Of a stretch of DNA of 64,000 bases, positions 44,522 through 61,174 are shown one piece after another. The stretch is taken from positions 1 to 64,000 of the IMG/VR virus record IMGVR_UViG_3300026184_000242. One strand, given 5' to 3'. Below the pieces are notes generated by a model. The model saw only the letters and a list, made by a program, of their open reading frames with translations, made no database searches and was not told where the DNA came from. The position numbers and the translations under genes are program-made. Within the stretch, counting starts at the first letter, position 1, and the number at the start of each line of letters is the position of its first letter. Source of the DNA: a virus.

Positions 44522-44926
44522 GTGTCGGATTATCCATCCGTGCGTTCCCTGATGTCCCGTTTTCCGAATCCGGTCCGTGCTCGTCATGGGACTAAACGTA
44601 ACCGGTATTGCGTGGGTGGGGCGTTACTTATCGCCCTGGAGGAGCGGGAAGATAGCCGGAGGCTGTCTTTCCCCTCTTACTCCGAGCTTGGCATGGAGTT
44701 CCAAAAGGTGAACCCAGGGCTATCCCCGGTTCGGGCCCATTCACTGGCCGATGAGCTGGTCGATGCCAACGACCGGGGCCAGTTTAATGAGGCCTGGGGG
44801 ATCCTGGCCGAGGTCTTGGGGGAATCCAAGCCCGTCCCGCGCTCCAAGTCCCTGGTACCCATCGAGCCCGAGCCCGTCGAGCCGGTGCGGATCGAGCTGG
44901 AGCAGAAAGAACCAGCCCTTGTCTAG
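44522..44926 (+). CDS. Early protein, unknown; GTG start
   Basis: The GTG has AAAGGAGCTTTCCC before it. The 134-residue product ends with a Pro/Glu-rich tail. It lies directly before the AAA+ gene. Function unknown. Confidence 0.55.
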   Translation: MSDYPSVRSLMSRFPNPVRARHGTKRNRYCVGGALLIALEEREDSRRLSFPSYSELGMEFQKVNPGLSPVRAHSLADELVDANDRGQFNEAWGILAEVLGESKPVPRSKSLVPIEPEPVEPVRIELEQKEPALV

Positions 44927-44981
44927 CGATAATCCGTTTGAGCCTGATCAACTATCCTCCATCCCTCCAGGGGAGATTCAT

Positions 44982-46121
44982 ATGCAGGACGCCAAGACTT
45001 CCGGAATGAGCCTGGGATTCCACAACGAGGATCCCGACGAGCTGGAGCTGTACGCCTTCCTGTCCAAGGAGCAGGGGTACTTCGAGCCCGAAACCTCCCA
45101 CCTGTTCCAGGCCCACCTGCAACCAGAGCAGGTCGCCTACTTCCAGGAGCTGGTGCTGGAGCACCTGTCCGACGGTCAGCCCTTGGCCCAATTCCACGCC
45201 GATCTGGCCAAGGACGGCTATATCCTCCACCCCCGTGCCCGGCTGCTGATCCACCGCCACGCCTACGGATCCTCCTCCACCAAGGTTTTCGCGGTGCTGC
45301 CTCCCGATCAGCTCCAGCCGTTCCAGAAGATCCTGGAGAGGGTGGACCAGGACCGCCCGGTTGTGAAGGACGGGACCGCCGGCGTCACGCTCCACTTCTG
45401 GGAAAAGGACCCCATGGGCCGCCTGAATTTCGACCGGATGCTGGTCCAGGCCGACAGTCTCGGCGGGGACGATGGGCTGTATCCCTTCCTGAACGTCCCC
45501 AAGATGGTCAACAGCTTCCTGGATTCCGACGAGCATATCCTGATCCTGTTCGGCCCTCCTGGCTCCGGGAAAACCAGCCTCATAAAGCGTGTCATGTGGG
45601 AGGTGGCCCAAAGCGGACTGCGCCAGGGCGAACCCTTCCCCAACACGTTCTATGTCAAGGACGAAAACCTGCTCCGGGACAACAGCTTCTGGAGCAAGAT
45701 GTCCGGCTCCAACTGCTCCCTGCTGGTGCTGGACGACCTGGACGACAGCCTCCAGCCCCGCACCGCCAGGAAGCCCAATCCGTTCGTCAGCCAGCTCCTG
45801 TCCTACTCGGACGGCGTGTTCCAGCATCCAGCCAAGACGATCATCACCTCCAACCGGCCCGAGCAATCGGTGGATAAGGCGCTGGTGCGCCCCGGGCGGT
45901 GCTTCGACGTCCTGGAAATGCCCTACCTGACCCGGCAGCAAGCCCAAACGTACTGGACAAGCCAGGGGCTGTCCGCCTCCTCCTTCCATGACCATTTCGA
46001 GGGTCAGGAGGAGATCAGCCAGGCGTGGCTGGTCAGCGCCGTCCAGACGGCCAAGGATCTGCTCCCCCGGGACTACCTCCACCAGGAGGGGGTGAGCGTT
46101 CGCCAACGGTTCCTGCAATGA
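44982..46121 (+). CDS. AAA+ ATPase
   Basis: The 379-residue product has an N-terminal domain of about 170 residues without recognised motif and a C-terminal AAA+ module with GPPGSGKTS (about 191), LLVLDDLDD (about 247), TIITSNRPEQ (sensor 1) and VRPGRCFDVLEMP (arginine-finger region). The ATG at 44982 has GGGGAGATTCAT before it; upstream in-frame codons belong to the preceding gene. It may act as a motor or chaperone on DNA or proteins. It precedes two small genes and the Ro60/Y RNA locus. Confidence 0.88.
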   Translation: MQDAKTSGMSLGFHNEDPDELELYAFLSKEQGYFEPETSHLFQAHLQPEQVAYFQELVLEHLSDGQPLAQFHADLAKDGYILHPRARLLIHRHAYGSSSTKVFAVLPPDQLQPFQKILERVDQDRPVVKDGTAGVTLHFWEKDPMGRLNFDRMLVQADSLGGDDGLYPFLNVPKMVNSFLDSDEHILILFGPPGSGKTSLIKRVMWEVAQSGLRQGEPFPNTFYVKDENLLRDNSFWSKMSGSNCSLLVLDDLDDSLQPRTARKPNPFVSQLLSYSDGVFQHPAKTIITSNRPEQSVDKALVRPGRCFDVLEMPYLTRQQAQTYWTSQGLSASSFHDHFEGQEEISQAWLVSAVQTAKDLLPRDYLHQEGVSVRQRFLQ

Positions 46122-46619: not shown

Positions 46620-46657
46620 GATAACCCCATTGACATGACAGGGAGGGCCAGTAGAAT
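46620..46657 (+). promoter_or_regulatory. Promoter of the Y RNA-like locus
   Basis: GATAA, 5 bases, TTGACA, a 16-base spacer and TAGAAT form a strong promoter that begins at the last base of the preceding stop codon. It would start a transcript at about 46664 reading through the three structured units to the terminator at 47059-47083. Confidence 0.85.
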
Positions 46658-46682
46658 AGGAATTGTGCCGCAGACGTCGGAC

Positions 46683-46759
46683 GGCCGGGGGATCTTCCCG
46701 CTTCGCACCCCGGCCCCGTCCGGCCACACAAGGATAGCTTGCTGTCCTTGTGTGGCTGG
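46683..46759 (+). other. Leader hairpins before the Y RNA units
   Basis: Two strong stems lie in the leader. The first is a perfect 8-bp stem 46683-46690 with 46708-46715. The second is a perfect 12-bp stem 46723-46734 with 46745-46756, which extends outward to 46720/46759. The second stem uses the GGCTGG bases that also start unit 1, so the two folds are mutually exclusive. Confidence 0.65.
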
Positions 46760-46828
46760 ATGGCGCAGAGGACAGGTACTTCGTCCAGTGATAACGTCAA
46801 CCCCCGTTCGCAACAGCTTCCTCCAGCC
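46754..46828 (+). ncRNA. Y RNA-like unit 1
   Basis: A 7-bp closing stem (GGCTGGA / TCCAGCC) encloses TGGCGCAG at the 5' side, a hairpin GGAC...GTCC around AGGTACTTC, and CAGCTTCC at the 3' side. The same 5' and 3' conserved blocks bound units 2 and 3. Bacterial Y RNAs form a stem from their ends that is bound by the Ro60 (Rsr) ring. The Ro60-family gene lies directly downstream. Confidence 0.7.
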
Positions 46829-46839
46829 TCTACTCAGTT

Positions 46840-46920
46840 TGCCCGTGGCGCAGGGCTCGGTTACTTCGCCAGTGACTTGAAATCACTACCAAAACACCGA
46901 GCCCATCAGCTTCCCGGGCA
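46840..46920 (+). ncRNA. Y RNA-like unit 2
   Basis: A closing stem TGCCCG/CGGGCA encloses TGGCGCAG and CAGCTTCC as in unit 1. Inside, GGGCTCGGT (46853-46861) pairs with ACCGAGCCC (46896-46904). A perfect 5-bp hairpin AGTGA/TCACT (46871-46887) has the 7-base loop CTTGAAA, which equals a serine (UGA) anticodon loop, although no full tRNA folds. The closing-stem bases differ from unit 1 but still pair, which supports the structure. Confidence 0.7.
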
Positions 46921-46926
46921 TCTTTT

Positions 46927-47055
46927 CGGGTGGCGCAGAGGGCGGATACTTCGCCATAGGAGCGAGTGGTCGTCGGTTCGAGTCCGACCGGGTTTCAAAG
47001 GAACCCGTAGCTCAGTGGGTAGAGCACTTATCTCCGTCCTCCCCAGCTTCCCCCG
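46927..47055 (+). ncRNA. Y RNA-like unit 3 with tRNA-like module
   Basis: CGGG/CCCG closes the unit around TGGCGCAG and CAGCTTCC. The insert is tRNA-like in permuted order: T-arm GTCGG-TTCGAGT-CCGAC (46972-46988), acceptor stem CGGGTT/AACCCG closed by a 7-base loop (46989-47007), TA, then D-arm GCTC-AGTGGGTA-GAGC (47010-47025). AGTG (46965-46968) pairs with CACT (47025-47028) to join it to the Ro-binding stem. This is the layout known for YrlA-type bacterial Y RNAs. Confidence 0.8.
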
Positions 47056-47058
47056 TCC

Positions 47059-47083
47059 GGGGCCCTTCGGGGCCCCACTTTTT
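47059..47083 (+). terminator. Terminator of Y RNA-like transcript
   Basis: A perfect 7-bp stem (GGGGCCC / GGGCCCC) with a TTCG tetraloop is followed by AC and five T residues. It lies 14 bases before the Ro60-family start, so the RNAs end here and the protein is made from read-through. Confidence 0.88.
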
Positions 47084-47097
47084 CAAGGAGCCCCGCC

Positions 47098-48465
47098 ATG
47101 TCCCGCCTCAACACCCCGTCCCAGGCTGACCGCCCCCGCACCCACGAGGGAGCCCCTGCCCGCCGGCTGACCGCCATCCAGGCGCTGCGCCGGACGGTAC
47201 TGTCCGCCCTCCTGTGGGAGGACACCTTCTACGAGTTCGGTAGCGAAGGAGCCCAGCGGATCCGGGCCCAGGTTGCCCGTCTCGCGGAGACGGACCCGGA
47301 CCTGGAGACGGTGGCCGCTATGGCCGTCGAGGCGCGGGAGGAGCAGCACCTGCGTCATGTCCCCCTGCTGCTGGTGCGGGAGCTGGCTCGGTTCAGTTCC
47401 CCGCGCACCGCGCAGACCCTGGCCCGGGTGATCCGGCGCCCGGACGAATTGGGGGAGTTCGTGCGCATGTATTGGGAGGGGAGCACGGAGGGCCCGGCCC
47501 TTTCCAACCAGGTCAAGAAGGGGCTGGCGGAGGCGTTCCGCAAGTTCGACCGCTACCAGCTCGCCAAGTGGTCTACGGGAGACACGCGCAAGGGAGGGGT
47601 GCAGGGGCGGACGGTTTCGCTCCTGGACGTTATGCGGCTGGTCCACCCCAAGCCCAAGGACGCGGCCCAGGCGAAGCTGTGGGCCGATCTCAAGGCTGCC
47701 CCCCTGGCCCCTCCGGACACCTGGGAGACTCGGCTTTCCGGGGGCGAGTCGGCCAAGTCCGCCTTCCTGGACCTTCTGGAGCGGAACAAGCTGGGGTACA
47801 TGGCCCTGCTCCGGAACCTACGGAAGATGGATATGGAGGGGGTGGACTCCGATCTGGTCCGCCAGCGGCTCCTGGAAGGGGCCCAGAAAGCCCAGGCCCT
47901 TCCCTTCCGGTTCATCGCCGCAGCCCGCGCCGCCCCGCGCCTGGAGCCCACCCTGGATCAGGCCATGATCGAGTCCATGGGGGCCATGGACCGTCTCCCG
48001 GGCAAGACCCTGGTCCTGGTGGACCACTCCGGATCCATGTCTGCCCCGGTTTCCCGGCGGTCGGATATGAGGCGCTGGGACGCCGCCGCCGGCCTCGCCG
48101 TTCTGCTGGCCGGGGTGGCGCAGGAGTGCGAAGTTTGGTCGTTCGGAACGGACATTCAGGCGGTTCCGCCCCGCCAGGGCATGGCCCTGATCGACGCCAT
48201 ACACAAGGCCCGGGTGGGAATGAGCACCAACCTGGGGAAGGCCGTCAAGAATGCGCTGGTCGAGGATTGGGACCGCCTGGTGGTGATTACCGACGAGCAG
48301 TCCGGCGACCGGGTTCCGGAGCCCTCCACCGCCAAGCCGGCCTACATGATTAACGTGGCCCCATATGAGCACGGGGTCGGCTATGGAAGCTGGGTGCATA
48401 TCGACGGATTCAGCGAAGCCACCCTCAAGTTCATCCAGGCCCTGGAGAGCGAGGAGCTGTCCTGA
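47098..48465 (+). CDS. rsr: TROVE and vWA protein of Ro60/Rsr family
   Basis: The 455-residue product has a TROVE (HEAT-like ring) region at about 20-290, with PLLLVRELARFSSPRTAQTL, KKGLAEAFRKFDRYQLAKW, DVMRLVHPKPKD and NKLGYMALLRNLRKM. A vWA domain with MIDAS VDHSGSMSA (about 307-315) and VITDEQSGD (about 395) follows. It is the bacterial Ro60 orthologue that binds Y RNAs and misfolded RNAs and works with exoribonucleases in RNA quality control. CAAGGAG precedes the start. The neighbouring tRNA-like RNA units fit its known ligands. No RtcB or RtcA gene is present. Confidence 0.92.
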   Translation: MSRLNTPSQADRPRTHEGAPARRLTAIQALRRTVLSALLWEDTFYEFGSEGAQRIRAQVARLAETDPDLETVAAMAVEAREEQHLRHVPLLLVRELARFSSPRTAQTLARVIRRPDELGEFVRMYWEGSTEGPALSNQVKKGLAEAFRKFDRYQLAKWSTGDTRKGGVQGRTVSLLDVMRLVHPKPKDAAQAKLWADLKAAPLAPPDTWETRLSGGESAKSAFLDLLERNKLGYMALLRNLRKMDMEGVDSDLVRQRLLEGAQKAQALPFRFIAAARAAPRLEPTLDQAMIESMGAMDRLPGKTLVLVDHSGSMSAPVSRRSDMRRWDAAAGLAVLLAGVAQECEVWSFGTDIQAVPPRQGMALIDAIHKARVGMSTNLGKAVKNALVEDWDRLVVITDEQSGDRVPEPSTAKPAYMINVAPYEHGVGYGSWVHIDGFSEATLKFIQALESEELS

Positions 48466-48512: not shown

Positions 48513-49061
48513 ATGAAAGACGGAACACGCCGTTTGCTGAACGTACTCCGGGAAGCGATTCCCCTGGCCAGGGAGGAAGCCGAGAATGGCCACCTGGAGT
48601 TCGATACCTTCGGCCTGGCCGGACCTGCCTGCGGAACCGTGGCCTGCCTGATGGGGTGGGCGGCCCAAACCCCCTCCATGATCGAGGAGGGGCTGGCCCC
48701 CAAGGTAAGTTTCCCGGAAAGAAGTGGGTTCGGTACCTCTAAGGAGAACCCGCTGATCTTTTATTTCAACGGGCAACCCCTAACCAGTTTCAAGCAGATT
48801 GCCTTGTTCTTCGGTATTACGCTCAATATGACGGAGCAGATTTTCGGGATTTCCCGCATGGCCTGCCCCGCAGAGGACCTGAAATTCCGGGAGGAGAAAC
48901 TTCGAGCCCTGCTCCTGGAACGGCTGCTGGAGGAAGGGGAGCTTCTGGACGAGCCTGCGGCGGAGGTTGCCGCCTGCAAGGAGAAGGAGGCTCGGGAAGC
49001 GGCCACCCAGGCCACCCAGGTGATGCGGGAGAAACCCGCCCGGCATACGGAGTGCGTGTGA
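48513..49061 (+). CDS. Early protein, paralogue of 49328 gene
   Basis: The 182-residue product carries LEFDTFGLAGPACGTVACLM followed by GWAA (about 28-51), matched by LNFNTFG...CGTFGCLVGWAA in the gene at 49328. Both have a helical C-terminus rich in Glu/Ala. The start has GAGGACGCC. The conserved CGTxxCLxGWAA motif has no known function to me; two cysteines may bind metal. Confidence 0.65.
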   Translation: MKDGTRRLLNVLREAIPLAREEAENGHLEFDTFGLAGPACGTVACLMGWAAQTPSMIEEGLAPKVSFPERSGFGTSKENPLIFYFNGQPLTSFKQIALFFGITLNMTEQIFGISRMACPAEDLKFREEKLRALLLERLLEEGELLDEPAAEVAACKEKEAREAATQATQVMREKPARHTECV

Positions 49062-49327: not shown

Positions 49328-49888
49328 ATGAGCAAGGAAAGGGAGCGGATCGAGGCCCTGGTTCGCAACGCCTTCCCACGGGCCTGGGAGGCCTATGACG
49401 AGGGCAGGCTGAATTTCAACACATTCGGTCACCACAAGGAGGAATGCGGGACCTTCGGGTGCCTGGTGGGGTGGGCGGCCATAGAGGACGGGGGCCGGGA
49501 AATCGGCCTTTACCCGAGCTGGAATTGCGGAGCCTTGGACGTGCGGAATTCGGAGGGGAAAAGCCTGCTAGATGGCCAATGGGGGCGGACCCTGTCCGAT
49601 TTCTTTGGGATTGCCCAGGATGAATCCACCCTTCTTTTTGGAGGGAACCACCAACACCTCTTTTGGGAAATGCACGGTCACGGTGACCTTCTCCCCAATG
49701 AAGATCCGGGAATTTCGAATATATCCGACGACCTGGAGCTGGAGCTACGGGAGAGGCTCGCCCGCCAGATCGTGGCCAGGATGCGCGAGGAGGAAGGGTT
49801 GCCACCCGACATGGAGGAGGACGACGGTCAGGAGGCTGCCCAGGAGGTCCAGGAGTTCCTGCGCAGCGAGGCAACCGTCACCGCCTGA
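49328..49888 (+). CDS. Early protein, paralogue of 48513 gene
   Basis: The 186-residue product shares the LNFNTFG...CGTFGCLVGWAA motif (about 28-52) with the gene at 48513. The start has TAGGAGGATGCC. The C-terminus is acidic and helical. The two copies flank a conserved small protein. Function unknown. Confidence 0.65.
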   Translation: MSKERERIEALVRNAFPRAWEAYDEGRLNFNTFGHHKEECGTFGCLVGWAAIEDGGREIGLYPSWNCGALDVRNSEGKSLLDGQWGRTLSDFFGIAQDESTLLFGGNHQHLFWEMHGHGDLLPNEDPGISNISDDLELELRERLARQIVARMREEEGLPPDMEEDDGQEAAQEVQEFLRSEATVTA

Positions 49889-50713: not shown

Positions 50714-53700
50714 CTACTCCAGCCCCTGGCTTTCCAGGGTCTTTATGGACCGCCGGAAGATTTCATTCTTCCGGCGGTTTAGTTCTTCGATCTTGCGCCG
50801 CTTCTCCTCCGGATCCAGGTAGGGGGTTCGGTAAAGCTCCTCCACCTGATTGTTGATCTCCCGGATGGTCCGGTAGTTCTTGCGCAGGAAGTCGTGCTCC
50901 CGAAGCTGCTTCTCGTGGCTGGTGAGCAGGCTGCGCTTCTGCTGGGGGAGGTGGCGGTTGCGGTAGCTCCGCGCCGTGTTCATGGTCTTGTCGGCGTCCA
51001 CCATCAGCTCGTAGAACCGCTTCTCGTAGTACGTGTTGTGCTCCGGGCCGGTGCCCCGGTAGAGCGCCCCCAGCACCGGCCAGTCCTGTAGCTCGGTGCT
51101 CGGCGGGTGCGGGTAGTCCAGCATGTTGCGGGCGAACACGTCCGTGGCCCCCAGGGCGTACATGCCGATGGGGCCCAGGTAGCCCCGGAAAAGGTGCTCC
51201 AGGCGGTCCGGAGACATACCGGTGGCCTGGCCCACCGCCCGCATGGTGTCGCTGGTCCAGGGGCCATACTGCGCCTGCGGGAGCAGCTCCTGCTCCCCTT
51301 CCGGGACGATGGGCCGGTTCGTGAAGAAGCTCCGGTTGGCGATTTCCTCCGCCAGCGGGGCCAGCACGTGCGGCACCGGGGCCGGGATCCCGTCTACCTC
51401 CACGTTCCCGAAGTTCAGGGTGTTCTCCAGGTCGAATTGGAGCGCCCGCATGGACTTGTCCAGCGCCTCCCGGTTGTGGAAGTACAACAGCTCCGCCAGC
51501 CGCTCCGGCACGTTGCCGAACAGAATCCCGATCTCGAAGGGCTTGGGGATCACCCAGTGCTCGCCCCCGGCGAAGAAGTGCCAGTATTGCTCCCGCTGCC
51601 AGGTTTCCAGGGCGTTGAACCGGTCGTCGTCCTTGTTCTGCATCCAGAGGGCCACCGACGCCAAGGCCAGACCCATGCCCTTGAAGGTGAAGGCCACGGG
51701 GTGCTGGAGCCCGTACCGCGCCAGCCGGTCGATGCCCTGGAGGCGGGCGTTCAGGAAGGGCACGGTGCTGGCCATGAAGCGCACCACCGGGTTATCCCCG
51801 CGCTTTGAGAAATCCATCATGTCCTTGGCCTCGAAGGCCGCCTCCAGGTTGGACTTCCCGGCCCGCTTGGCCGCCTTGTAGTAGGCCAGGCGGTTGGCGT
51901 TCTCCGAGCGCACCGACAGGGATTCCCATTTGTCGTTGGCCCGCGCCATGAGCTTGACCGGGCTCCCCCACGCGCGGCGCTTGCGGTCGTGGGCCCTGAG
52001 CAGGCGGCGGGTCACCTTGGTCATGGCCGAGGGGTCCTGAGCGTGGAGATAGCCGCCGTAGAAGCCACCACCAGCCGCCCACATTGCGATCATGTCCGGG
52101 TCCTCCTCGTGGGCGTGGAACAGCTCCCGGACCCCGGAGAGGATCGGGGTGACGTTATCCCGCGACAGGACATAGGCCTGGCCCGTATCCCGGAGGAAGT
52201 TGCGAAGCATGAACTCCGGATTCCGCGTCACCGACCAGCGCAGGAGCTGGGTGGGGGCCCGGAAGGCCCGCGCCCATGGCCCCAGGGGCTTCTCCTGGAG
52301 GGAGCCCATGGCCCGCGCCAGGAGCTGGTTGTGGACCTCCCAGTATTCCGCCTGGCCGCCCCGGTACACCCGCATGATCCGGGCGTCGTCCGGCTGCGCC
52401 CAGTGGTACATCATCCGCATGCCCCGCCAGGCTTCATCGGGCAGGCTGTCCACGTCCACCCCGTCCTCGGCCAGGAGCCGCTTGACCTGCTCCATGGGCA
52501 CCGGGGCCTTGCGGAAGTTGGGCCGGGCCCGGGTCATAAGGTCGGAATGACCACCCAGGTTCTCCACGGCCATGGCCGCCGCATGGTTGCGCATGGAGGC
52601 GGTCAGGAGGTGGGCGGTGTTCATCAGCATGTTTTCGATCACGCTATTGATGTTGCTCCGCCCCCCACCCAGGCGCTTGATGGGGTTGGTCTGGTTGGCC
52701 AGGCTGCCCGCCGCCTTGGGGCCGCGAATGTCGTCCGCCTCGTGGACGCGGTAGAAGGGTACATAGTCCATATGCTCCCAATACTTCCGGGACTCCGGGT
52801 CGATCAGGCCGGAGGATTCCGCGAAGTTAAGCATCTGGTGGTTGAAGTCCGTCCACTCCTGCGCGGCCTGCTCGAACTCGGGGTGGAGACGCCCCAGGTC
52901 AATGGCGGCCTCGATCTCCTCGGGGGTGAACAGGCGCTCCCGCCCCTCCATCCATAGCCGCGCCGCCCGGCGCCCGGCCATATACCGTTCCCATAGATCC
53001 CACTCGTGCTGGATAGGGTCGAGAATATCCAGTAGACCCTTGCGGTTCGGCACCAGGGTGGCGGCACCGTCCTTGAACATGAGGGGCCCATGCAGGAGCA
53101 CGACGCGCATTTGGGCATCGGGAGTGGTGCTCATTCGGGCGGCGATATAGGCGCTGCTTTGCGGGGTCAGCGTGGTCTGGTCCCGCTGCTCCACAATATC
53201 CTCGGCGTATTTCAGCCCGTAGAACTTGTCCAGTCCGCCCTGCTGGAGCCGTTTGGCGAGCCCCTTGCGGCTGCGGAAAAACTCCTGGATCGGGCTACGG
53301 TGGGGGCGGCCGATCTTAGCCCCCATGGATTGAAGGTGCGGGTTGTCGCGGGGGTCGGATCCCTCGTTCGTGGCCAGGAGCGGATCCGCGCTGGCCTGGC
53401 TCAGGGCCTGCCGGACGGCGGCCTGGCCCTGGGGGGAAAGGCGCTGGTACCGCGCGCGGAGGGGGCCGTACTGCTGGAACCGGCGCTGGTTGGCCCGGTT
53501 CTCCGCCTCCAGCACCGCCACCTCGTCCTGGTTTCCCTGCTTGCGGGCCTTGGCCAGCCGGCGCTGGACCGTGCGGGCCCGGTGCTGGTCGCGGAAGGCC
53601 TGGTCCGGGCGGATACCCGCCTGGACGGCGTCCTCCACCAGGGAGCCCGCTTCCCCGGCCTCGTGCGGATTGCGGTGGCGCAGGGCGGCCCAAGACTCCT

Positions 53701-56700
53701 TGGAGCCTAGCTGCCAGTTGGCGGTCAGGCTTTCCCAGTGATCCCCCAGGGCACCGTCCAGCCAGCTACCCCGCAGGTAGCGGTAGGACCGGCCGATCAG
53801 GTTCCGCAGGTCCCGGTCGGTGAGCTGGAGCTTGAACCCTAGGCTGCGCAAGGCGGCCTTGATCGGCCCCAGGACCCGGTCCAGGAGGGTTGGCTGGGCC
53901 CCCTCCTCGGTCATTTCCGCTAAGGCCTCCTCGGCGGCCCTGCGGCGCTCTGAGACGACATTCAGGTCCAGGCCATGGGAACGCGCCGCCATCTGGACCT
54001 GCGCCGGGAACTGGTCGGCCACCTGATCCATATAGGAGTCGAGCTGCCCACCCAGGAGGGACCGGATCCCGTAGTGCCCCACCGTCTCATGCAGGAGCAC
54101 CTGCTGGGCCCGCTCCACGGAGGGCAGGTTGTCGGCCACCAGATAGACCTGGCCCGTAACAGGGTCGAATACGCCCTGGGTGCCCTTCTCGAAGCCGCGC
54201 TGACGAATCGGATGGGACAGCCGGAACGGGAGGTCGGAAACCGATTGCACCACCTGGAACCCGGGCCCGTGTCGCCAGCCCTCGGCAACCGGTTGCAGGC
54301 CCTGCTCGATGGTGTGGCGCGGCAGCCCTCCCTGTTCCTGCTGCTGGCTCGGCCAGTCCTGGAACAGTGGCTGGCCCTGCATGGCGGACTCGCGCATGGC
54401 CTCCGTCACCGGAAGCCGCCATACCTGCATCGTGTGGAAGGGGTCCTCGGTCAGCGTCCCGTTGAAGTGGGCGGCCAGCCCCGGGGTGCCCTCCGCCTCC
54501 ATGGCCTCCCGGAAGGTGGCTCCGGCCTCCATTTTCTCCAGCACCAGCCGCAGGGTATCAAGGTAGGGCCTGTCCAGGGATACCAGGCTCGTTCCATCCG
54601 GAAGGGGAATATCCCCCCGTTCCATGGCGGCGAGCTGCCCTTCATCCAGCGTATCGCCTTCGTAGCGCAGCTCCCCATTATCGTTGGGGATCTGGACGGT
54701 CGATGTCTCCGGCTTGGCCCCCCACTTCTTCGTGTACTTCTTGACGGCCTCGGGCAGGATCTTGTCGTAGTAGGCCTTCATGCCCTCGCCGCCCATTTCC
54801 AGGTCCAGGCCGGACAGGCTGGTGAACTGCATGCCCTGCCAGGGGCCGCTGGTGGGGCTGTGCGGCTCCTGCTCCAGGAGCCGGTTGGCCAGCTCCTGCC
54901 CCACGAAGCCCTGGACCTCCTTGACGCCCATTTGCCGGCGGAGAATCTCTCTCCCGTTGTGGTCGAAGGCGACGAGCTTGGGGTTCTCGAATGCCTTGGT
55001 CGTACCCTTGGGGACCTTCTCCCGTAGCTCCAGCCGGGTAACGTGTCGGGCCATGTTGTACCGGTGGGTCTGGGTGGAACCGGTGGTCCAGCCGATGGAG
55101 CTATACCCGTTCTCCGTGGCCCAACGGATCATCCGTTTCAGGACGAGGTTGGTCCAGCCGTTGCCCTCGAAGGGGGCTTGCGGAACCACCTTCCGGGAAA
55201 ACTCCTGCTGCTCCATCATGTCCTCGCGGTAGGGGGCCGGATCCACGTCCTCCCCCAGCCCAAAGAACTCCCGAACCTGGGCGTCAGTGGGCTCCTTGCC
55301 CTGGTAGCCGTGCTTGCGGCCCGCCTGGTGCCAGTCGGATTGGAGTTCCTCCAGGAACAGCATGGGGTTACCGTCCGCGTCCTCCCGATCCGTGAACCGC
55401 ACGTGGGCCAGAATGTTGGGCTCGCCCCGGAAGTGGGGGGCCCAGTAGGTCTCGCCCTTGCCTGCCGGAAGGGTCAGGGTCAGCTCGCGGTAGTTCTCCC
55501 CACCAGGGGATTTGAACTGGTCGTAGCTGGTGGGGGTCTGGCGGGGCTCGATCCGGGTGGCCACCATGGCCTTGGCCGCCTCCAGGTCCTGGAAGTGGCT
55601 AACACCTCCTCCGAAACCGGGGACGCGGTACTCCCCGGTTTCGGGGTCCTGGTCGATAACCATGACGACTCGCTTGAAGTTGATCGGGTTCTGGCCCTTG
55701 GCCATGTAGACCTTCCGGCCCCCGTCCTCCCCTTCCTGCCATTTCAGGCCCCCGGCCGGGGCCCCGCGCAGGTTCTCCTGCACCGTGACGTGGTTGTCGC
55801 GCAGGAAGTCCAGGACCTCCTGACGGCTGATCTTCTTGGGCCCCTCGAAGATCGTTCCCTGGAACTCGTCGCGGGCCGTGTCGGCCCGGTCGTCCAGGTA
55901 CTCCAGGAGTCCGGACCAGTCCAGCTCCTCCTGCTTGAAGATCCGCCCCTTTCGCGCCATCGTCTGGACGATCTGTTTGATCTGCTCCGGGGTGCCGGAA
56001 TTGGGCAGCCGGTTCGCCAGCTCGTGCTCCATCTGGTAGTAGAAGCCCGGGGCCACATGGGCCAGGTAGGGTTCGGAATCCTGGGGAATGCCGCCCTGGA
56101 GCGCGAGGGAGCTGAGGTCCCCCCGGGGGCCGGTGAAGGTGTCCAGGAACTCCAACTGGTTGTTGTTGGCGAAGCGGCTCAGGTTCGTCACCGAGGGCCC
56201 GGAGGGGCTGCGCAGGCGGGCGATGAAGGCGGACGCACCCGTCTGGTGGAGGGCCTGCAACAGCCGGGAGGCCCCCGTGCCCTGCTGGCGGGTACGGAGC
56301 GGGGCCATTTCCTCGGCGGTCATGGGCAGGAAGCCCACCACGTTGTGGCGGTGGTCCAGGAGAAGCAGGCCTTCTTCGTCCCCGACCTTGTTGGCCACGT
56401 ACTGGCGGGCGTCCTGGGCGCTCTCCAGGGTATCCCTCTGGTCCTGGGGCTCGACCCGGCGGAACCTGCGCTCCTCCACCGGGATCTGGTGGACCCGCCG
56501 CATGCCCGGGATGCGGTTCGCCTTCTGCCCCCGGTCCTCCGCCTTGGGGCCCTGGTCCTCGGTGAACTCACCGCCCGGGGCCACCACCACCATGCCTCGG
56601 AAATGGATGCCCGTTGCGGCCATGTTGCGGTTGAACCGGTCGGTGACGCGCTGGTCCAGGGCGGACTGCTGGGGGTTGCCCCCGGGATGGTTGTGGACAA

Positions 56701-59700
56701 GCCAGACCTGAGCGGCCCCCGGGACATCGTGAACCGCCCCCGCCATCAATCCGGAGTCGAAACTGGCGGAGCTGGGGCCTCCCAGGGAATGGCGGATCAC
56801 CGAAAGCACGTTGCCCTTCTTGTCCGCCACCACGGCCAGGAGGTTCTCCTGGGCCTCTTTGCGGAAGGGGGCGGTAAGGTGTGCCACACCCTCGGCGCTG
56901 CTGATCCGCGTCTGGCCGGTATGGACCCTGCCGGTGCGCACCCGGGAGACGGTCTGGCGGATATGGCGCTTGGGGATGGCCGGCTTGGCCTGGGGGGCGG
57001 TAAAGAAGTCCAGCCCGCCCGGCTCGGGGACGGAGAAATCCAGGCTGTACTGCTCGCCGCCCTGGCTGATGCTGTAGGTCGGCTGCTCGCCGTTCTCCAG
57101 GTCCGTGGGGTAGTCGAACTGCTCGGACGTGGACTGGCGCTGGTGGAAGCTCGGGGAGGCCGGCTCCTTCGGGTTGGCGTTTTCCAGCCAGTCCCGGAAC
57201 TCGCGCACGTTGGCGAAATCCCGCATGGCCCCCAGGCCCTTCCAGCCCTTGGCGTAGTTGCGCCGGTAGGCCTTGCGGGCCTCCTCCCGGTTCTTGTAGC
57301 CGAGCATGACCTTGTGCTCGTCAAACTCACCCGTCTGGGGGTTCTGCTGATCCACCACGAACACGGGGTTGTTGGGGTTGCGGGCGCGGCGGCCGATAAA
57401 GACGTCCATGGGCTCCCCTTCTCCGCCCACGGTGCGCTTTATGTACCCGTAGTCGTCCTGGAGCTTCACGGACCACGGGGTGCCGTTCTGGTCGGTGCCC
57501 CGCCGGGTGGACCCTCGGGGGTTCTCTACCCCGATCTCCAGACCGGGGATGGGCCGGAAGTGGCCCTTCGGGTAGTTGCCGGCCTCCTTCTGGGCCTCGC
57601 TGGGGTTGGTTTCGACCTGCCGGCGGGCCTCTGTAATCTTTGTGGTGTATTGTGGCCGCCCCTCGAAGGGAATATCTTTCTCGCTCGTGATCGTCCCTTC
57701 CGGGGATTGCTCCAGGAGAGTGCCATGCTGCGCCTGATAGGTCGCCTCCTCCTCTGGCGTAAGCCCCTGCTCCAGATCCTGATTCTCCTGAGCTTGGTAG
57801 GTATAGGTGGGCTGACCCTTCTGCTCCTGGTCGATACGATTCACCAGATCGTCGGGGCCATGTACGGGGTACCCAAGCTCCTCCAGCCGCCGGGACAGAC
57901 CGTCGAGCGAATCCCCGCCATTTTTCCGGAAGGCCATGGTATCCCGCTTGAAATTCTCGGGATCAATCTCCCCTCCCAGGTCCTCGCGGTTCAGCCCCCC
58001 CAGTTTCCGGATAGCCGTCATTAGGCTGTCCTTCTGAGGGTTCACCTTGGTCCGCCGGGGGGTCGGCTGGGGCTTCGCCGGGGTTTCGCTGCCCACCACC
58101 TCGTCGTAGACCTGATTCAGCTTCCCTTCGGGAAGGTTCTTGAGGGCCTTGAAAATCGCCTTCTGCTGGGAGCTGCCCTGCTGGCCGGTCTGGGTATCCA
58201 GCTCATAATCCGTCACCAGGGAGTCCAGGTTGCCCTTGCGGGCCTTGAGGATCTGCTGGGCCTTGTAGGTCGGGGAGTTCTTTTGGGCCTCCCGTTCCTG
58301 GTCGAGCCGCTGCTGTAGGAGCTGGTCGGTGCGCTGCTCTTGCTCCTGACGGATCTGGGCCCGGGTCTTTTCCGGCCCGCTGTACTCGGGCTCACCCTCG
58401 ATCTGGTTGGGGTACTGCCGCCCCAGGTCCGGGTAGTGGGTGACCGCCTTGGCCGGTACCGTCTGGCCCTGCTTTAGGGCCCGCTCCACCTGCCGGCGGT
58501 GGGGCCAGTGCCCCGGGGTCTTGCTCTTGGGCGAGTATTGGAGCCCCTGGGGCCGGCTCTGCACGTCGATCAGCTCGTCAAGGTGATCCCGCAGGAAGCC
58601 CCGCATTTCCTCGGTGCTGGGGACCTCCTTGCCGTTCTGCTTGGGCTCGTTCGCCAGCGCCCGGTAGGCCTTCTCCACCTCCTGGTCCGTCATGTCCTCG
58701 GGCTGCTTGCCCTGGAACCGGTCGTTGTTGACCAACGACTCCTCCAGGGAGTTCTGCGCCTCCTTGGTGCGCCTCTGGTTCTTGGCCACCTTGCTCGACC
58801 GGATCTGATCGACGTCCTCCTGTAGCCAATTCGCGGCGTCCGGGATCTCCTGCCCTTTCTGGACGGCTTGGCGAACGGCCTGGGAGTAGCGGCGCACCTG
58901 ATCCGGGGTTACCTCCTCGGACGGCACCCCGTGCCCGGCAAGCTGGTGGTCCAGGTTGCGCCGGTCCATATCCTTTTCGGATAGGTCCTTGGTCTGGAGC
59001 TGGCGTCCCAGGTCGTAGGCGTAGGCAGAGAAATCGTCGGGCAGGTTGACCTCGTGCTTGCCGTACCGACCCAGGTTGAGCTGTCGCTTCGGGCCCTGGT
59101 TCTCGGCTTCCGGCTGGGCCTCCTCCTCGGGCGGACCCACCAGATCCCCTTGCTCGGGCTGGGGTTCGGGCTGGGGTTCGGGCTGGGGCTCGCCGTTCTG
59201 CTTGGCCAGGATGCCGTCGATCAGGCCTTGGCGATCCTTGCCCTCGGTCTGGACTCCGAGCTTCTCCCCCAGGGCCCGCAGGTTCTCCTCGTCAAAGTCC
59301 TGGAGGTCCTCGGCCCCCAGGTTCATCTGGGGCTGCTCGGTCGGCGTGGCCTCGGTCGGCGTGGCCTCCGTGGGGGCCGCCTGGGGCCCCTGGTCCGGGC
59401 TGATCTCGGTCTGGGCCAAGGGGAAGTCCCGGAACGGATCCTGCTCCGGGGCTTCCGCGTTGTTATGCGCGGTCTGCGTCTCGGGCGAGCCGCGCTCGGC
59501 CATGATTATGGAGTTGACAATCTGGTCCCGGCCCTTCCCCTCGGTGGGGATGCCAAGCTCGTCGGCACGGGCCTGGAGGTCCCCATCGGAAAGCTGCCCC
59601 AGCTCCTGTCGGCGCTGTTCGGCCTGCTGGCGGATCTGCTGGGCCTGGTTCTCCAGGTCGGCCTGCCCCGAGCCGCCCTGGAAGGACGGGGTTTCCTCGC

Positions 59701-61174
59701 CCTCCGGGTGGCCACCCTTGGCCGCCTGGACTGCCTTCTTGGCCGCCTGCTTTCCACCAAGGACGGAGTGGAGGATGCTGCCGGCCCCAGCGCCGCCAAT
59801 GGCCCCCAGGATCCCGGCGTTGAGGATGGTGTGCCCCACCTTACTCCAGTCCAGGTTCTTCACGTCCTCCCAGGAGTCCACGCCCTCGAACTGGTTGAGG
59901 TTGTACGCCGTCTGGGCGGCCTGGTTGAGCATTTCCGTGAAGCCCTCGGCCGCGCCGCCACCCAGGGTGCGCCGCAGGAGGGTGTGACCCTTGGCCAGGA
60001 ACTCGTGGAAGGGCAGGCCCTCGGAAGCGATCTCCGTTAGGCCGTTGAACGCGGCATGGATTGTCGCGTCCTTCTGATCCCGGTGCTGGAGGTTGACGTC
60101 GCTGCCATAGGTCGCCCCGGCGCTCTGCCCGTACAACATGGCGTAGCCCAAGCCGGGGTTGCCGGTGGTCACCGACACCCCCAGGGCCGGGAGGAGGCTG
60201 CTGGCCATGGTGATCCCGCCCTTCTCCAACCACCAGGCGGGCGTCCCCTTCTCGGCTTTCAGCGGGCTCTGTAGGAGCTTTTTGGTCGCGTCCAGGTAGA
60301 TCCCCCGGCCCACCTTGTTCAGGGCCTGGGAGGCGGGGTTCTTGGCCGCCTCCTGGATCAGCTTCTGGCGCTCCTTGTCCGACATGGAGCCCTGGTCCAT
60401 GTACTGTAGAAGCTGCTTGCGCTGGGCCTCCAGGTTATCCCCGACCATCTGGAGGGCACCCCCGGCGTCCTGCTGGAGGCGCAGGCCGATATGCGCCAGG
60501 GCCTTGAGGGGCTCCACCTGGCCGACGTTGCCACCCTGGTCTGCGCTGCCGCCGTGCTCGTGCTCCATGCCGGCGTGGGGCGGGGCCTGGAACTGGGACC
60601 AATCGGGCTGCTGGGGGTGGTAGCCCACCACGTCCCGGGCCTGGTCCAGGGGGTTGGCCGGCTGGGCCTGCTCCTGGGGCTGGCCCGCCTGGCCATGGGT
60701 AACCTGTTGGATGATCTGGTCAGGGATCCCGGCCTGACGCGCCAGCTCGGCCTTGGTCTGGAGGTCCGGCGCGTCGTGGATCTTCTGCGCCACCTCCGGG
60801 TCGATATGCAGGTTCTGGAGCTGGTCCTGCGGCGACGGGCCGGGCTGCGGGGGCTCCCCGACCCCGGGCGGCTTGGGCGGCAGCTTGCCGATGGGCTGGT
60901 CCGGGGAGACGTCCGGAACGGTGCCCTGGCCGCCCAAGTTCTGGGTGTGCTCCATGGCCGGATGCGGCGAGGGCGGTTCCGGGGCGGAGGGGGCCGGTGT
61001 GGGCGTGTGGAGCCCCTGGGGCTCCTTGGGCATGGTGTAGGTGTCGCCCTTCGGCGCCAGGGGGAAGTCCTTGAACGGATCGTCGCCCGATTCGGGCGCA
61101 CCCGTATCGGGCGGTTCGGAATCCTGATTGGCCCCCTGCCGGAGCGGGAGGTTGGCGAAGGGATCGTCCGCCAT
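50714..61174 (-). CDS. Giant polyvalent virion protein (3486 aa)
   Basis: This multi-domain protein has the plan of polyvalent proteins that phages inject with their DNA. The N-terminal 500 residues are Pro/Gln-rich with hydrophobic stretches (about 315-360, 448-480). Two SAP/HeH-like segments follow (about 525-560, 625-655). Further on come a pyrophosphatase-like domain (about 1195-1330), a RadC/JAB-type domain with HNHPGG (about 1493), and a domain with FLEELQSDWHQAGRKHGY (about 1940-1955). Then come an HExxH metalloprotease-type motif HETVGHYG (about 2360) and an LPD38-like region with RNPEFMLRNFLRDTGQAYVL (about 2981-3000). The C-terminus has a hydrophobic helix and a Lys/Arg/Glu-rich tail. 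It is the last gene of the late operon. Confidence 0.85.
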   Translation of the reverse strand: MADDPFANLPLRQGANQDSEPPDTGAPESGDDPFKDFPLAPKGDTYTMPKEPQGLHTPTPAPSAPEPPSPHPAMEHTQNLGGQGTVPDVSPDQPIGKLPPKPPGVGEPPQPGPSPQDQLQNLHIDPEVAQKIHDAPDLQTKAELARQAGIPDQIIQQVTHGQAGQPQEQAQPANPLDQARDVVGYHPQQPDWSQFQAPPHAGMEHEHGGSADQGGNVGQVEPLKALAHIGLRLQQDAGGALQMVGDNLEAQRKQLLQYMDQGSMSDKERQKLIQEAAKNPASQALNKVGRGIYLDATKKLLQSPLKAEKGTPAWWLEKGGITMASSLLPALGVSVTTGNPGLGYAMLYGQSAGATYGSDVNLQHRDQKDATIHAAFNGLTEIASEGLPFHEFLAKGHTLLRRTLGGGAAEGFTEMLNQAAQTAYNLNQFEGVDSWEDVKNLDWSKVGHTILNAGILGAIGGAGAGSILHSVLGGKQAAKKAVQAAKGGHPEGEETPSFQGGSGQADLENQAQQIRQQAEQRRQELGQLSDGDLQARADELGIPTEGKGRDQIVNSIIMAERGSPETQTAHNNAEAPEQDPFRDFPLAQTEISPDQGPQAAPTEATPTEATPTEQPQMNLGAEDLQDFDEENLRALGEKLGVQTEGKDRQGLIDGILAKQNGEPQPEPQPEPQPEQGDLVGPPEEEAQPEAENQGPKRQLNLGRYGKHEVNLPDDFSAYAYDLGRQLQTKDLSEKDMDRRNLDHQLAGHGVPSEEVTPDQVRRYSQAVRQAVQKGQEIPDAANWLQEDVDQIRSSKVAKNQRRTKEAQNSLEESLVNNDRFQGKQPEDMTDQEVEKAYRALANEPKQNGKEVPSTEEMRGFLRDHLDELIDVQSRPQGLQYSPKSKTPGHWPHRRQVERALKQGQTVPAKAVTHYPDLGRQYPNQIEGEPEYSGPEKTRAQIRQEQEQRTDQLLQQRLDQEREAQKNSPTYKAQQILKARKGNLDSLVTDYELDTQTGQQGSSQQKAIFKALKNLPEGKLNQVYDEVVGSETPAKPQPTPRRTKVNPQKDSLMTAIRKLGGLNREDLGGEIDPENFKRDTMAFRKNGGDSLDGLSRRLEELGYPVHGPDDLVNRIDQEQKGQPTYTYQAQENQDLEQGLTPEEEATYQAQHGTLLEQSPEGTITSEKDIPFEGRPQYTTKITEARRQVETNPSEAQKEAGNYPKGHFRPIPGLEIGVENPRGSTRRGTDQNGTPWSVKLQDDYGYIKRTVGGEGEPMDVFIGRRARNPNNPVFVVDQQNPQTGEFDEHKVMLGYKNREEARKAYRRNYAKGWKGLGAMRDFANVREFRDWLENANPKEPASPSFHQRQSTSEQFDYPTDLENGEQPTYSISQGGEQYSLDFSVPEPGGLDFFTAPQAKPAIPKRHIRQTVSRVRTGRVHTGQTRISSAEGVAHLTAPFRKEAQENLLAVVADKKGNVLSVIRHSLGGPSSASFDSGLMAGAVHDVPGAAQVWLVHNHPGGNPQQSALDQRVTDRFNRNMAATGIHFRGMVVVAPGGEFTEDQGPKAEDRGQKANRIPGMRRVHQIPVEERRFRRVEPQDQRDTLESAQDARQYVANKVGDEEGLLLLDHRHNVVGFLPMTAEEMAPLRTRQQGTGASRLLQALHQTGASAFIARLRSPSGPSVTNLSRFANNNQLEFLDTFTGPRGDLSSLALQGGIPQDSEPYLAHVAPGFYYQMEHELANRLPNSGTPEQIKQIVQTMARKGRIFKQEELDWSGLLEYLDDRADTARDEFQGTIFEGPKKISRQEVLDFLRDNHVTVQENLRGAPAGGLKWQEGEDGGRKVYMAKGQNPINFKRVVMVIDQDPETGEYRVPGFGGGVSHFQDLEAAKAMVATRIEPRQTPTSYDQFKSPGGENYRELTLTLPAGKGETYWAPHFRGEPNILAHVRFTDREDADGNPMLFLEELQSDWHQAGRKHGYQGKEPTDAQVREFFGLGEDVDPAPYREDMMEQQEFSRKVVPQAPFEGNGWTNLVLKRMIRWATENGYSSIGWTTGSTQTHRYNMARHVTRLELREKVPKGTTKAFENPKLVAFDHNGREILRRQMGVKEVQGFVGQELANRLLEQEPHSPTSGPWQGMQFTSLSGLDLEMGGEGMKAYYDKILPEAVKKYTKKWGAKPETSTVQIPNDNGELRYEGDTLDEGQLAAMERGDIPLPDGTSLVSLDRPYLDTLRLVLEKMEAGATFREAMEAEGTPGLAAHFNGTLTEDPFHTMQVWRLPVTEAMRESAMQGQPLFQDWPSQQQEQGGLPRHTIEQGLQPVAEGWRHGPGFQVVQSVSDLPFRLSHPIRQRGFEKGTQGVFDPVTGQVYLVADNLPSVERAQQVLLHETVGHYGIRSLLGGQLDSYMDQVADQFPAQVQMAARSHGLDLNVVSERRRAAEEALAEMTEEGAQPTLLDRVLGPIKAALRSLGFKLQLTDRDLRNLIGRSYRYLRGSWLDGALGDHWESLTANWQLGSKESWAALRHRNPHEAGEAGSLVEDAVQAGIRPDQAFRDQHRARTVQRRLAKARKQGNQDEVAVLEAENRANQRRFQQYGPLRARYQRLSPQGQAAVRQALSQASADPLLATNEGSDPRDNPHLQSMGAKIGRPHRSPIQEFFRSRKGLAKRLQQGGLDKFYGLKYAEDIVEQRDQTTLTPQSSAYIAARMSTTPDAQMRVVLLHGPLMFKDGAATLVPNRKGLLDILDPIQHEWDLWERYMAGRRAARLWMEGRERLFTPEEIEAAIDLGRLHPEFEQAAQEWTDFNHQMLNFAESSGLIDPESRKYWEHMDYVPFYRVHEADDIRGPKAAGSLANQTNPIKRLGGGRSNINSVIENMLMNTAHLLTASMRNHAAAMAVENLGGHSDLMTRARPNFRKAPVPMEQVKRLLAEDGVDVDSLPDEAWRGMRMMYHWAQPDDARIMRVYRGGQAEYWEVHNQLLARAMGSLQEKPLGPWARAFRAPTQLLRWSVTRNPEFMLRNFLRDTGQAYVLSRDNVTPILSGVRELFHAHEEDPDMIAMWAAGGGFYGGYLHAQDPSAMTKVTRRLLRAHDRKRRAWGSPVKLMARANDKWESLSVRSENANRLAYYKAAKRAGKSNLEAAFEAKDMMDFSKRGDNPVVRFMASTVPFLNARLQGIDRLARYGLQHPVAFTFKGMGLALASVALWMQNKDDDRFNALETWQREQYWHFFAGGEHWVIPKPFEIGILFGNVPERLAELLYFHNREALDKSMRALQFDLENTLNFGNVEVDGIPAPVPHVLAPLAEEIANRSFFTNRPIVPEGEQELLPQAQYGPWTSDTMRAVGQATGMSPDRLEHLFRGYLGPIGMYALGATDVFARNMLDYPHPPSTELQDWPVLGALYRGTGPEHNTYYEKRFYELMVDADKTMNTARSYRNRHLPQQKRSLLTSHEKQLREHDFLRKNYRTIREINNQVEELYRTPYLDPEEKRRKIEELNRRKNEIFRRSIKTLESQGLE

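What the first reader, a model, noticed from the sequence alone, without database searches (positions are those of the whole stretch)
46620..48465. Phage-borne Ro60 with three tandem Y RNA-like RNAs
A strong promoter, three structured non-coding units sharing 5' TGGCGCAG...ACTTCG and 3' CAGCTTCC, an intrinsic terminator and a TROVE/vWA (Ro60, Rsr) gene lie in one line. Ro60 proteins are known to bind Y RNAs, and bacterial YrlA RNAs mimic tRNAs. Three tandem units, two without and one with a tRNA-like module, in a phage would be unusual and could steer Ro60 and nucleases toward host or phage RNA. The closing stems differ between units but all pair, and the small internal stems co-vary (GGAC/GTCC, GGC/GCC).
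Basis: partly seen in the sequence, partly recalled or inferred. Interest (0 to 1): 0.9.

Follow-up and report, generated by a model that had tools for sequence, protein, structure and literature searches.

The report
Phage Ro60 operon with Y RNAs
This phage carries a Ro60 RNA-binding protein gene preceded by a row of three small Y RNA-like RNAs, one containing a rearranged tRNA look-alike; such rows turn out to be common beside this kind of Ro60 gene in phages and bacteria, and many of the look-alikes keep an anticodon arm, which the published description of bacterial Y RNAs does not include.

Summary
ORF 47098-48465 is a Ro60/TROVE protein with a vWA domain. The region upstream holds three Y RNA-type units. 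Unit 2 (46840-46920) and unit 1 (46754-46828) are the only hits in the 64-kb window of a covariance model I built from other phages and bacteria (E 1e-8 and 0.002). Unit 3 (46927-47055) matches Rfam YrlA (44.9 bits, below the curated cutoff of 69) and contains a circularly permuted tRNA fold. A 22-bp hairpin unique to this window overlaps the 5' arm of unit 1, so unit 1 may not fold as a Y RNA.

The arrangement is not unusual. Stem-and-motif scans found 372 units beside Ro60 genes of 82 phage-type and 80 bacterial loci against 1 on the reverse strand; arrays reach 7. Outer and inner helices covary strongly. About half of the testable tRNA-bearing units (72/153) also have an anticodon arm and variable loop in correct tRNA geometry, while the acceptor stem is capped by a short loop.

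Phage and bacterial Ro60-Y RNA pairs with tRNA mimicry are already known; complete four-arm permuted mimics in multi-unit arrays look like a new variant, though the key 2014 paper could not be read. Function in infection is inferred only.

The parts
46630..46657 (+). sigma70-like promoter TTGACA-16-TAGAAT reading into the RNA array
   Evidence: 11 of 12 consensus matches, the only one in 3.5 kb on both strands. In related phage arrays 26 of 59 have such a promoter within about 150 nt upstream of the first unit, 7.7 expected in shuffles
46716..46763 (+). 22-bp near-perfect hairpin with a 4-nt loop; its 3' arm contains the 5' outer-stem arm of unit 1
   Evidence: -44.3 kcal/mol, z -8.2; no comparable hairpin at the same place in the other loci examined (next longest 14 bp)
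46754..46828 (+). Y RNA-like unit 1, no tRNA module: outer stem GGCTGGA/TCCAGCC, TGGCGCAG 46761-46768, TACTTCG, CAGCTTCC 46814-46821; inner helix poor
   Evidence: model R1 (built without the window): 20.5 bits, E 0.0024 in 64 kb
46840..46920 (+). Y RNA-like unit 2, no tRNA module: outer stem TGCCCG/CGGGCA, 9-bp inner stem GGGCTCGGT/ACCGAGCCC, apical hairpin AGTGA/TCACT
   Evidence: model R1 40.3 bits, E 1.1e-8; fold -35.8 kcal/mol, z -4.4, 0 of 200 shuffles
46927..47055 (+). Y RNA-like unit 3 with a circularly permuted tRNA-like module
   Evidence: Rfam YrlA RF02553 44.9 bits, E 3.6e-8; aligned with 33 homologous units
46950..46971 (+). anticodon-arm-like hairpin TTCGC-CATAGGA-GCGAG plus 5-nt variable loop TGGTC (position 33 is A, not U)
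   Evidence: geometry test over all units
46972..46988 (+). T arm GTCGG-TTCGAGT-CCGAC
46989..47007 (+). acceptor-like stem CGGGTTT/GAACCCG closed by a 5-nt loop (no free CCA end)
   Evidence: acceptor helix covaries at all 7 pairs in homologues
47010..47025 (+). D arm GCTC-AGTGGGTA-GAGC
47059..47085 (+). intrinsic terminator between the RNA array and the protein gene
   Evidence: 7-bp all-GC stem followed by ACTTTTTC
47098..48465 (+). Ro60/Rsr (TROVE + vWA) protein, 455 aa
   Evidence: Pfam TROVE E 4.5e-12; PHROG 850 E 5.5e-50; AlphaFold model pLDDT 86 matches 9kop Z 25.3, Xenopus Ro60 1yvr Z 23.5, Thermus phage phiLo Ro60 9l5y Z 22.9, D. radiodurans Rsr 2nvo Z 19.6

Best explanation
The locus encodes a phage Ro60 ribonucleoprotein. 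A promoter drives a short array of Y RNAs that mostly ends at a terminator; read-through or a second promoter gives the Ro60 protein. Each RNA presents a conserved bulged helix to Ro60 (outer stem - U bulge - GG/CC - GGYGNAG opposite YUKUUCC - inner stem), so the ring can be loaded with alternative RNAs. The end away from the ring differs between RNAs: a simple hairpin or loop in some units, a circularly permuted tRNA in others. By analogy with D. radiodurans and Salmonella, the simple units would gate the ring and the tRNA-like unit would attract tRNA-binding enzymes or tether a nuclease, so that the RNP redirects RNA processing or decay during infection. Shown by sequence: the protein family, the unit architecture, the covarying helices, the tRNA-like arms. 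Inferred: transcription, binding to Ro60, gating, partners and benefit to the phage.
For: Ro60 fold with a full-length match to Ro60 structures; vWA metal-site residues D309, S311, S313 and D399 invariant in 30 relatives; the histidine of VHPKP (H183) is invariant and aligns with the SHLKP histidine of human Ro60. The units lie immediately upstream on the same strand in nearly all relatives: 166 vs 0 reverse-strand units in 82 phage-type loci, 206 vs 1 in 80 bacterial loci, and model R1 finds units in 18 of 19 phage-type loci where the scan had found none, all on the Ro60 strand. Two long-range helices covary at 14 of 16 pairs, 92% paired vs 63% in shuffles. tRNA arms covary in A4. The closest function known comes from D. 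radiodurans and Salmonella (PMC7790460, PMC8394870).
Against: No expression or binding data. Unit 1 may be unable to fold because of the upstream hairpin. The unit scanner demanded pairing, so the percentages of paired cells are biased upward; the A3/A4 covariation is not wholly independent of selection. The Ro60-binding role of the GGYGNAG/UUCC helix is by analogy.
Confidence: 0.8

Rival explanations
1. Decoy: the tRNA-bearing units, held and protected by Ro60, act as sponges for tRNA-cutting or tRNA-modifying enzymes (host anticodon nucleases of abortive-infection systems, RNase P, tRNA modification enzymes), sparing the real tRNAs during infection. (This is a sharper version of the last step of the best explanation, not a rejection of the RNP itself.)
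For: 72 of 153 testable tRNA-bearing units carry an anticodon arm plus 4-5 nt variable loop at exact tRNA geometry (30 expected, maximum 45 in 2000 shuffles), 61 with U33 and 66 with a purine at 37; GUU (Asn) is the commonest anticodon, with CAU, UGU and GUC also recurring. The acceptor end is capped by a loop of 7 nt or less in 82 of 97 (GCAA and GAAA commonest), so the mimic could be bound but hardly charged. Hughes et al. already proposed YrlA as a competitive inhibitor of an anticodon nuclease (PMC7790460).
Against: Equally common in bacterial chromosomes, so not specifically an anti-defence device. The window's own loop CAUAGGA lacks U33. Salmonella YrlA was not cut by the nuclease studied (PMC7790460).
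Confidence: 0.3
2. Tether: the tRNA-like end binds an exoribonuclease such as PNPase and Ro60 feeds it structured RNA, as in the D. radiodurans RYPER complex.
For: Established for D. radiodurans Rsr and Y RNA (PMC7790460; summarised in PMC8394870).
Against: The D. radiodurans case does not explain why different tRNA types and non-tRNA units coexist in one array.
Confidence: 0.3
3. The tRNA-bearing units are genuine permuted tRNA genes that mature into working tRNAs.
For: Rotating the module lets ARAGORN call a tRNA in 38 of 49 phage modules against 15-21 in chimaeric controls and 2 unrotated. Ten of 97 units hold CCA near the acceptor 3' strand.
Against: Most acceptor stems are closed by tight loops without CCA; every module sits inside the covarying Y RNA stem; no tRNA is called in the window; the window's loop lacks U33.
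Confidence: 0.05
4. The repeats are only a structured 5' leader that controls translation or transcription of the Ro60 gene (attenuator or riboswitch-like).
For: They lie upstream of the gene and are followed by a terminator in the window.
Against: In other phages units lie downstream of the Ro60 gene (L010 3890-4105; L045 5403-5903). Conserved motifs are inside each unit, and a terminator between array and gene was found in only 13 of 130 loci by a crude scan.
Confidence: 0.08

Closest known systems
Bacterial Y RNAs / YrlA (Rfam RF02553; Chen et al. 2014 RNA 20:1715, not readable here)
   Same: Encoded beside Ro60; 5'-3' stem plus T arm, capped acceptor stem and D arm in permuted order; by my memory of its abstract that paper reports Y RNAs near Ro60 in more than 250 bacterial and phage species, at least one per species with a tRNA-like domain
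   Different: Scores below the Rfam gathering threshold (44.9 vs 69). The non-tRNA units have no Rfam match. Many related units, including unit 3, add an anticodon arm and variable loop that the Rfam consensus lacks; a review lists only the D, T and acceptor arms (PMC8394870)
D. radiodurans Rsr - Y RNA - PNPase (RYPER)
   Same: Ro60 ring (2nvo, Z 19.6) with a partner Y RNA
   Different: One system in a bacterium with PNPase shown; here a phage, several tandem units, partners unknown
Salmonella rsr-yrlBA-rtcBA operon (PMC7790460)
   Same: Ro60 gene with more than one Y RNA in an operon, one with a tRNA-like domain
   Different: No RtcA/RtcB noticed beside the window's gene; RNAs upstream of Ro60 behind a sigma70-like promoter
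Thermus phage phiLo Ro60 (PDB 9l5y) and 9kop
   Same: Closest solved structures by sequence (phmmer E 1e-24) and among the best by fold
   Different: 28-29% identity in the structural alignment; no RNA named in the entry titles seen here
Listeria phage CKA15 Rsr candidate (PMC12282133)
   Same: Phage Rsr-like protein within 2 kb downstream of highly transcribed short regions suggested to be Y RNAs
   Different: There the RNAs are seen but not identified; here the RNAs are identified but expression is unknown

Membership tests
Ro60/Rsr (TROVE) | TROVE domain above the curated cutoff | tested here: met
   46.3 bits, cutoff 23
Ro60/Rsr (TROVE) | helical-repeat ring plus C-terminal vWA fold | tested here: met
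   399-426 residues aligned to Ro60 structures, Z 19-25
Ro60/Rsr (TROVE) | intact vWA metal-site residues | tested here: met
   DHSGS (D309, S311, S313) and TDEQ (D399) invariant in 30 relatives
Ro60/Rsr (TROVE) | binds Y RNA | not testable with these tools
   only the aligned histidine H183 and genomic pairing with Y RNA units
YrlA, Rfam RF02553 | score at or above the gathering threshold | tested here: not met
   unit 3 44.9 bits against 69; units 1 and 2 no match
YrlA-type bacterial Y RNA (functional sense) | T arm, closed acceptor stem and D arm in permuted order inside a 5'-3' stem | tested here: met
   unit 3; E 3.6e-8
YrlA-type bacterial Y RNA (functional sense) | encoded beside a Ro60 gene | tested here: met
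   same arrangement in relatives
YrlA-type bacterial Y RNA (functional sense) | conserved Ro60-binding sequence in the basal helix | tested here: inconclusive
   a strongly conserved GGYGNAG / UUCC helix exists, but its match to the published binding consensus could not be checked
   unit 2 E 1.1e-8, unit 1 E 0.0024
eukaryotic Y RNA (Rfam Y_RNA) | Rfam match | tested here: not met
   no match at E up to 5
tRNA gene | called by ARAGORN in native order | tested here: not met
   0 genes in the window

The most novel reading that the evidence does not exclude
Y RNAs of this Ro60 clade form multi-unit arrays in which different units present complete, four-arm, circularly permuted tRNA mimics with real anticodons but capped acceptor ends: a set of uncharged look-alike tRNAs carried by Ro60, which in phages protect against host tRNA-cleaving defences.
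Probability: 0.2. Interest if true: 0.85.

Novelty: new variant of a known kind. Interest (0 to 1): 0.58.

Why it matters
What bacterial and phage Ro60 particles do is still largely open. A compact family of phage loci with up to seven or more Y RNAs, including ones that display an anticodon arm, gives tractable systems (for example Caulobacter phage CcrColossus in laboratory Caulobacter) to test whether Y RNAs are nuclease tethers, ring gates or tRNA decoys. The covariance model also finds the tRNA-free Y RNAs that Rfam misses, and it shows that some annotated phage tRNAs are parts of Y RNAs.

Tried and rejected
A strict DNA pattern of the window's motifs in viral contigs found only a chance match inside a tail-protein gene (L002). 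Using the window protein as query in viral contigs found no relative because the pattern step was too strict; the Xanthomonas phage protein as query gave 74 loci. A possible fourth unit at about 46664-46733 (GTGCCGCAG ... CACAA) was considered and dropped: model R1 gives no credible + strand match there. The idea that arrays are a phage speciality was rejected: bacteria have them as often. The ARAGORN rotation test is weak by itself because chimaeras also score (15-21 of 49 against 38); fixed-geometry and covariation tests were used instead. Chen 2014, Sim and Wolin 2018, Wang 2018 and Sim 2020 are not held, so novelty against them is from memory and from papers citing them. A search for a paper on the Thermus phage phiLo Ro60 structure found none.

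Full report
WHAT IS THERE. The window lies in an IMG/VR virus record of 64,379 bp with a portal/head-tail adaptor, primase and helicase genes. A sigma70-like promoter (46630-46657) is followed by a very stable 22-bp hairpin (46716-46763), three units that share TGGCGCAG, ACTTCG and CAGCTTCC (46754-46828, 46840-46920, 46927-47055), an intrinsic terminator (47059-47085) and a 455-aa ORF (47098-48465).

THE PROTEIN. Pfam TROVE is matched at E 4.5e-12, above its cutoff, and PHROG 850 'RNA-binding protein' at E 5.5e-50. An AlphaFold model (mean pLDDT 86) aligns over 399-426 residues with the TROVE structure 9kop (Z 25.3), Xenopus Ro60 (Z 23.5), the Ro60 of Thermus phage phiLo (Z 22.9) and D. radiodurans Rsr (Z 19.6). 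The vWA metal-site residues (DxSxS, TDEQ) are invariant in 30 relatives, and the histidine in VHPKP is invariant and aligns with the SHLKP histidine of human Ro60. It is a Ro60 protein.

THE RNAs. With Rfam, only unit 3 matches: YrlA, 44.9 bits, E 3.6e-8 in the 2.5-kb stretch, below the gathering score of 69. Relatives were therefore collected: 78 phage records with a similar protein, of which ten loci were read; 74 IMG/VR loci; and 80 bacterial loci out of 247 hits. Upstream of the Ro60 gene nearly all of them hold the same kind of unit in tandem: outer stem - GGUGGYGNAG - inner stem - KUACUUC - variable apical part - inner stem' - YGCYUGUUCCCC - outer stem'. A motif-plus-stem scanner found 166 units on the Ro60 strand and 0 on the other strand in 82 phage-type loci (up to 7 per locus, 47 loci with two or more) and 206 against 1 in 80 bacterial loci (up to 6 per locus, 58 loci with two or more). 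Duplicates removed, these are 350 units. A few IMG/VR loci duplicate GenBank phages (L023 and L025 have the lengths of CcrColossus and CcrPW).

COVARIATION. In 75 short units without tRNA module (alignment A3, window left out) 14 of 16 pairs of the two long-range helices show changes on both sides; 92% of cells are paired against 63% in shuffles and 43-53% when slid. The scanner selected for pairing, which inflates the percentage. The model R1 built from A3 is independent of the window: its only two matches in 64 kb, both strands, are unit 2 (40.3 bits, E 1.1e-8) and unit 1 (20.5 bits, E 0.0024). R1 also finds units in 18 of 19 phage-type loci in which the scanner had found none, all on the Ro60 strand, and in the Microcystis phage Mvi-JY20 downstream of the gene. 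The array is thus a general companion of this Ro60 clade. A quick tree needs at least 13 switches between phage and bacterial labels for 160 proteins, with the window's protein nearest to Deltaproteobacterial and other bacterial proteins, on a long branch; repeated transfer between phages and bacteria is likely, though FastTree supports are weak (only 5 switches are forced by well-supported branches).

THE tRNA-LIKE MODULE. In unit 3 the order is anticodon-like arm (46950-46966), variable loop TGGTC, T arm (46972-46988), acceptor 3' strand, short loop, acceptor 5' strand (46989-47007), D arm (47010-47025): a tRNA cut between D arm and anticodon arm and closed at its acceptor end. Of 350 distinct units, 170 have a T arm. 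At the fixed tRNA geometry (5-bp stem, 7-nt loop, 4-5 nt variable loop, T arm) 72 of 153 testable units have an anticodon stem with at least 4 of 5 pairs; shuffled partners give a mean of 30 and a maximum of 45 in 2000 trials. Sixty-one of the 72 have U33, 66 a purine at 37, and the variable loop is AGGTC or TGGTC in 39. Recurrent anticodons are GUU (20), CAU (6), UGU (4), CUU and GUC (3 each). In 34 aligned units, including the window's, 26 of 37 pairs have two-sided changes, among them all 7 acceptor pairs. For the anticodon stem only two pairs covary, because its 5' strand is the conserved UUC motif, and these rows were chosen for that stem, so the shuffle test above is the better evidence. 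The acceptor stem is capped by 7 nt or fewer in 82 of 97 units, most often GCAA or GAAA; 10 have CCA nearby. The window's anticodon-like loop, CAUAGGA, resembles a Leu(UAG) loop but has A at position 33, so it should not be called a functional anticodon. Rotated, the phage modules are called tRNA by ARAGORN in 38 of 49 cases against 15-21 for chimaeras and 2 unrotated.

UNIT 1. Its sequence is a Y RNA unit with a perfect 7-bp outer stem, but the inner helix is poor, and the 5' outer arm plus TGG lies in the 22-bp hairpin (-44 kcal/mol against -24 for the unit alone; the 430-nt fold keeps the hairpin). No other locus examined has such a hairpin there (next longest 14 bp). Either it is cut (for example as an RNase III substrate) or unit 1 is switched off in this phage.

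HOW IT MOST LIKELY WORKS. Shown: protein family, unit architecture, covarying helices, tRNA arms. From known biology: Ro60 rings bind Y RNAs through a basal bulged helix; in D. radiodurans Y RNA tethers PNPase; YrlA is a substrate of tRNA-modifying enzymes (PMC7790460, PMC8394870). Inferred: the phage makes several alternative RNA partners for one Ro60 ring, some that only gate it and one that offers a tRNA-like surface. Two readings of that surface are about equally likely, tether for a nuclease or decoy for tRNA-cutting or tRNA-modifying enzymes. Hughes et al. suggested the decoy idea for Salmonella YrlA (PMC7790460); the anticodon arms found here would make it more plausible, but the fact that bacteria have them too speaks against a purely anti-defence role.

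NOVELTY. Phage Ro60 and tRNA-mimicking Y RNAs are known (Chen et al. 2014, from memory of its abstract and from PMC12282133 and PMC8394870; a phage Ro60 structure is in the PDB). The window is a new member of that kind. What I could not find described is the complete, four-arm permuted tRNA in many units and the length of the arrays; a review lists only D, T and acceptor arms for YrlA (PMC8394870), and the Rfam consensus has no anticodon hairpin. Hence 'new variant of a known kind', with the caution that the primary papers could not be read.

Noticed in passing
46716-46763: A 22-bp hairpin just upstream of, and overlapping, Y RNA unit 1; no comparable hairpin at this place in about 130 related loci. 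Possible processing site or switch.
   Followed up: partly
L003 2292-2359, L006 2269-2343, L008 1631-1698: Annotated tRNA genes (Thr, Ser, Gln) in published Xanthomonas, Brevundimonas and Caulobacter phage genomes overlap these Y RNA units; they look like misannotated permuted mimics.
   Followed up: partly
48513-49061 and 49328-49888: Two neighbouring ORFs downstream of the Ro60 gene share a motif (FDTFG...CGT..CL.GWAA / FNTFG...CGTFGCLVGWAA) and look like tandem paralogues; no PHROG match for the first and no Pfam match for either.
   Followed up: no
50714-61174 (- strand): A 3486-aa giant ORF with inorganic pyrophosphatase-like, RadC/JAB and LPD38 domains: a large polyvalent phage protein.
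   Followed up: partly
44751-46121: AAA ATPase gene upstream of the array (Pfam AAA, E 5e-11).
   Followed up: no
L006 5844-6189: Permuted tmRNA-like match (RF04321, 57.7 bits, above its cutoff) in Brevundimonas jumbo phage Kikimora, near the Ro60 locus.
   Followed up: no
L008 1452-2419 (CcrColossus) and its relatives: Different units of one array mimic different tRNA types, including ones with a long variable arm (Ser/Leu-like) and an anticodon plus T arm only.
   Followed up: partly
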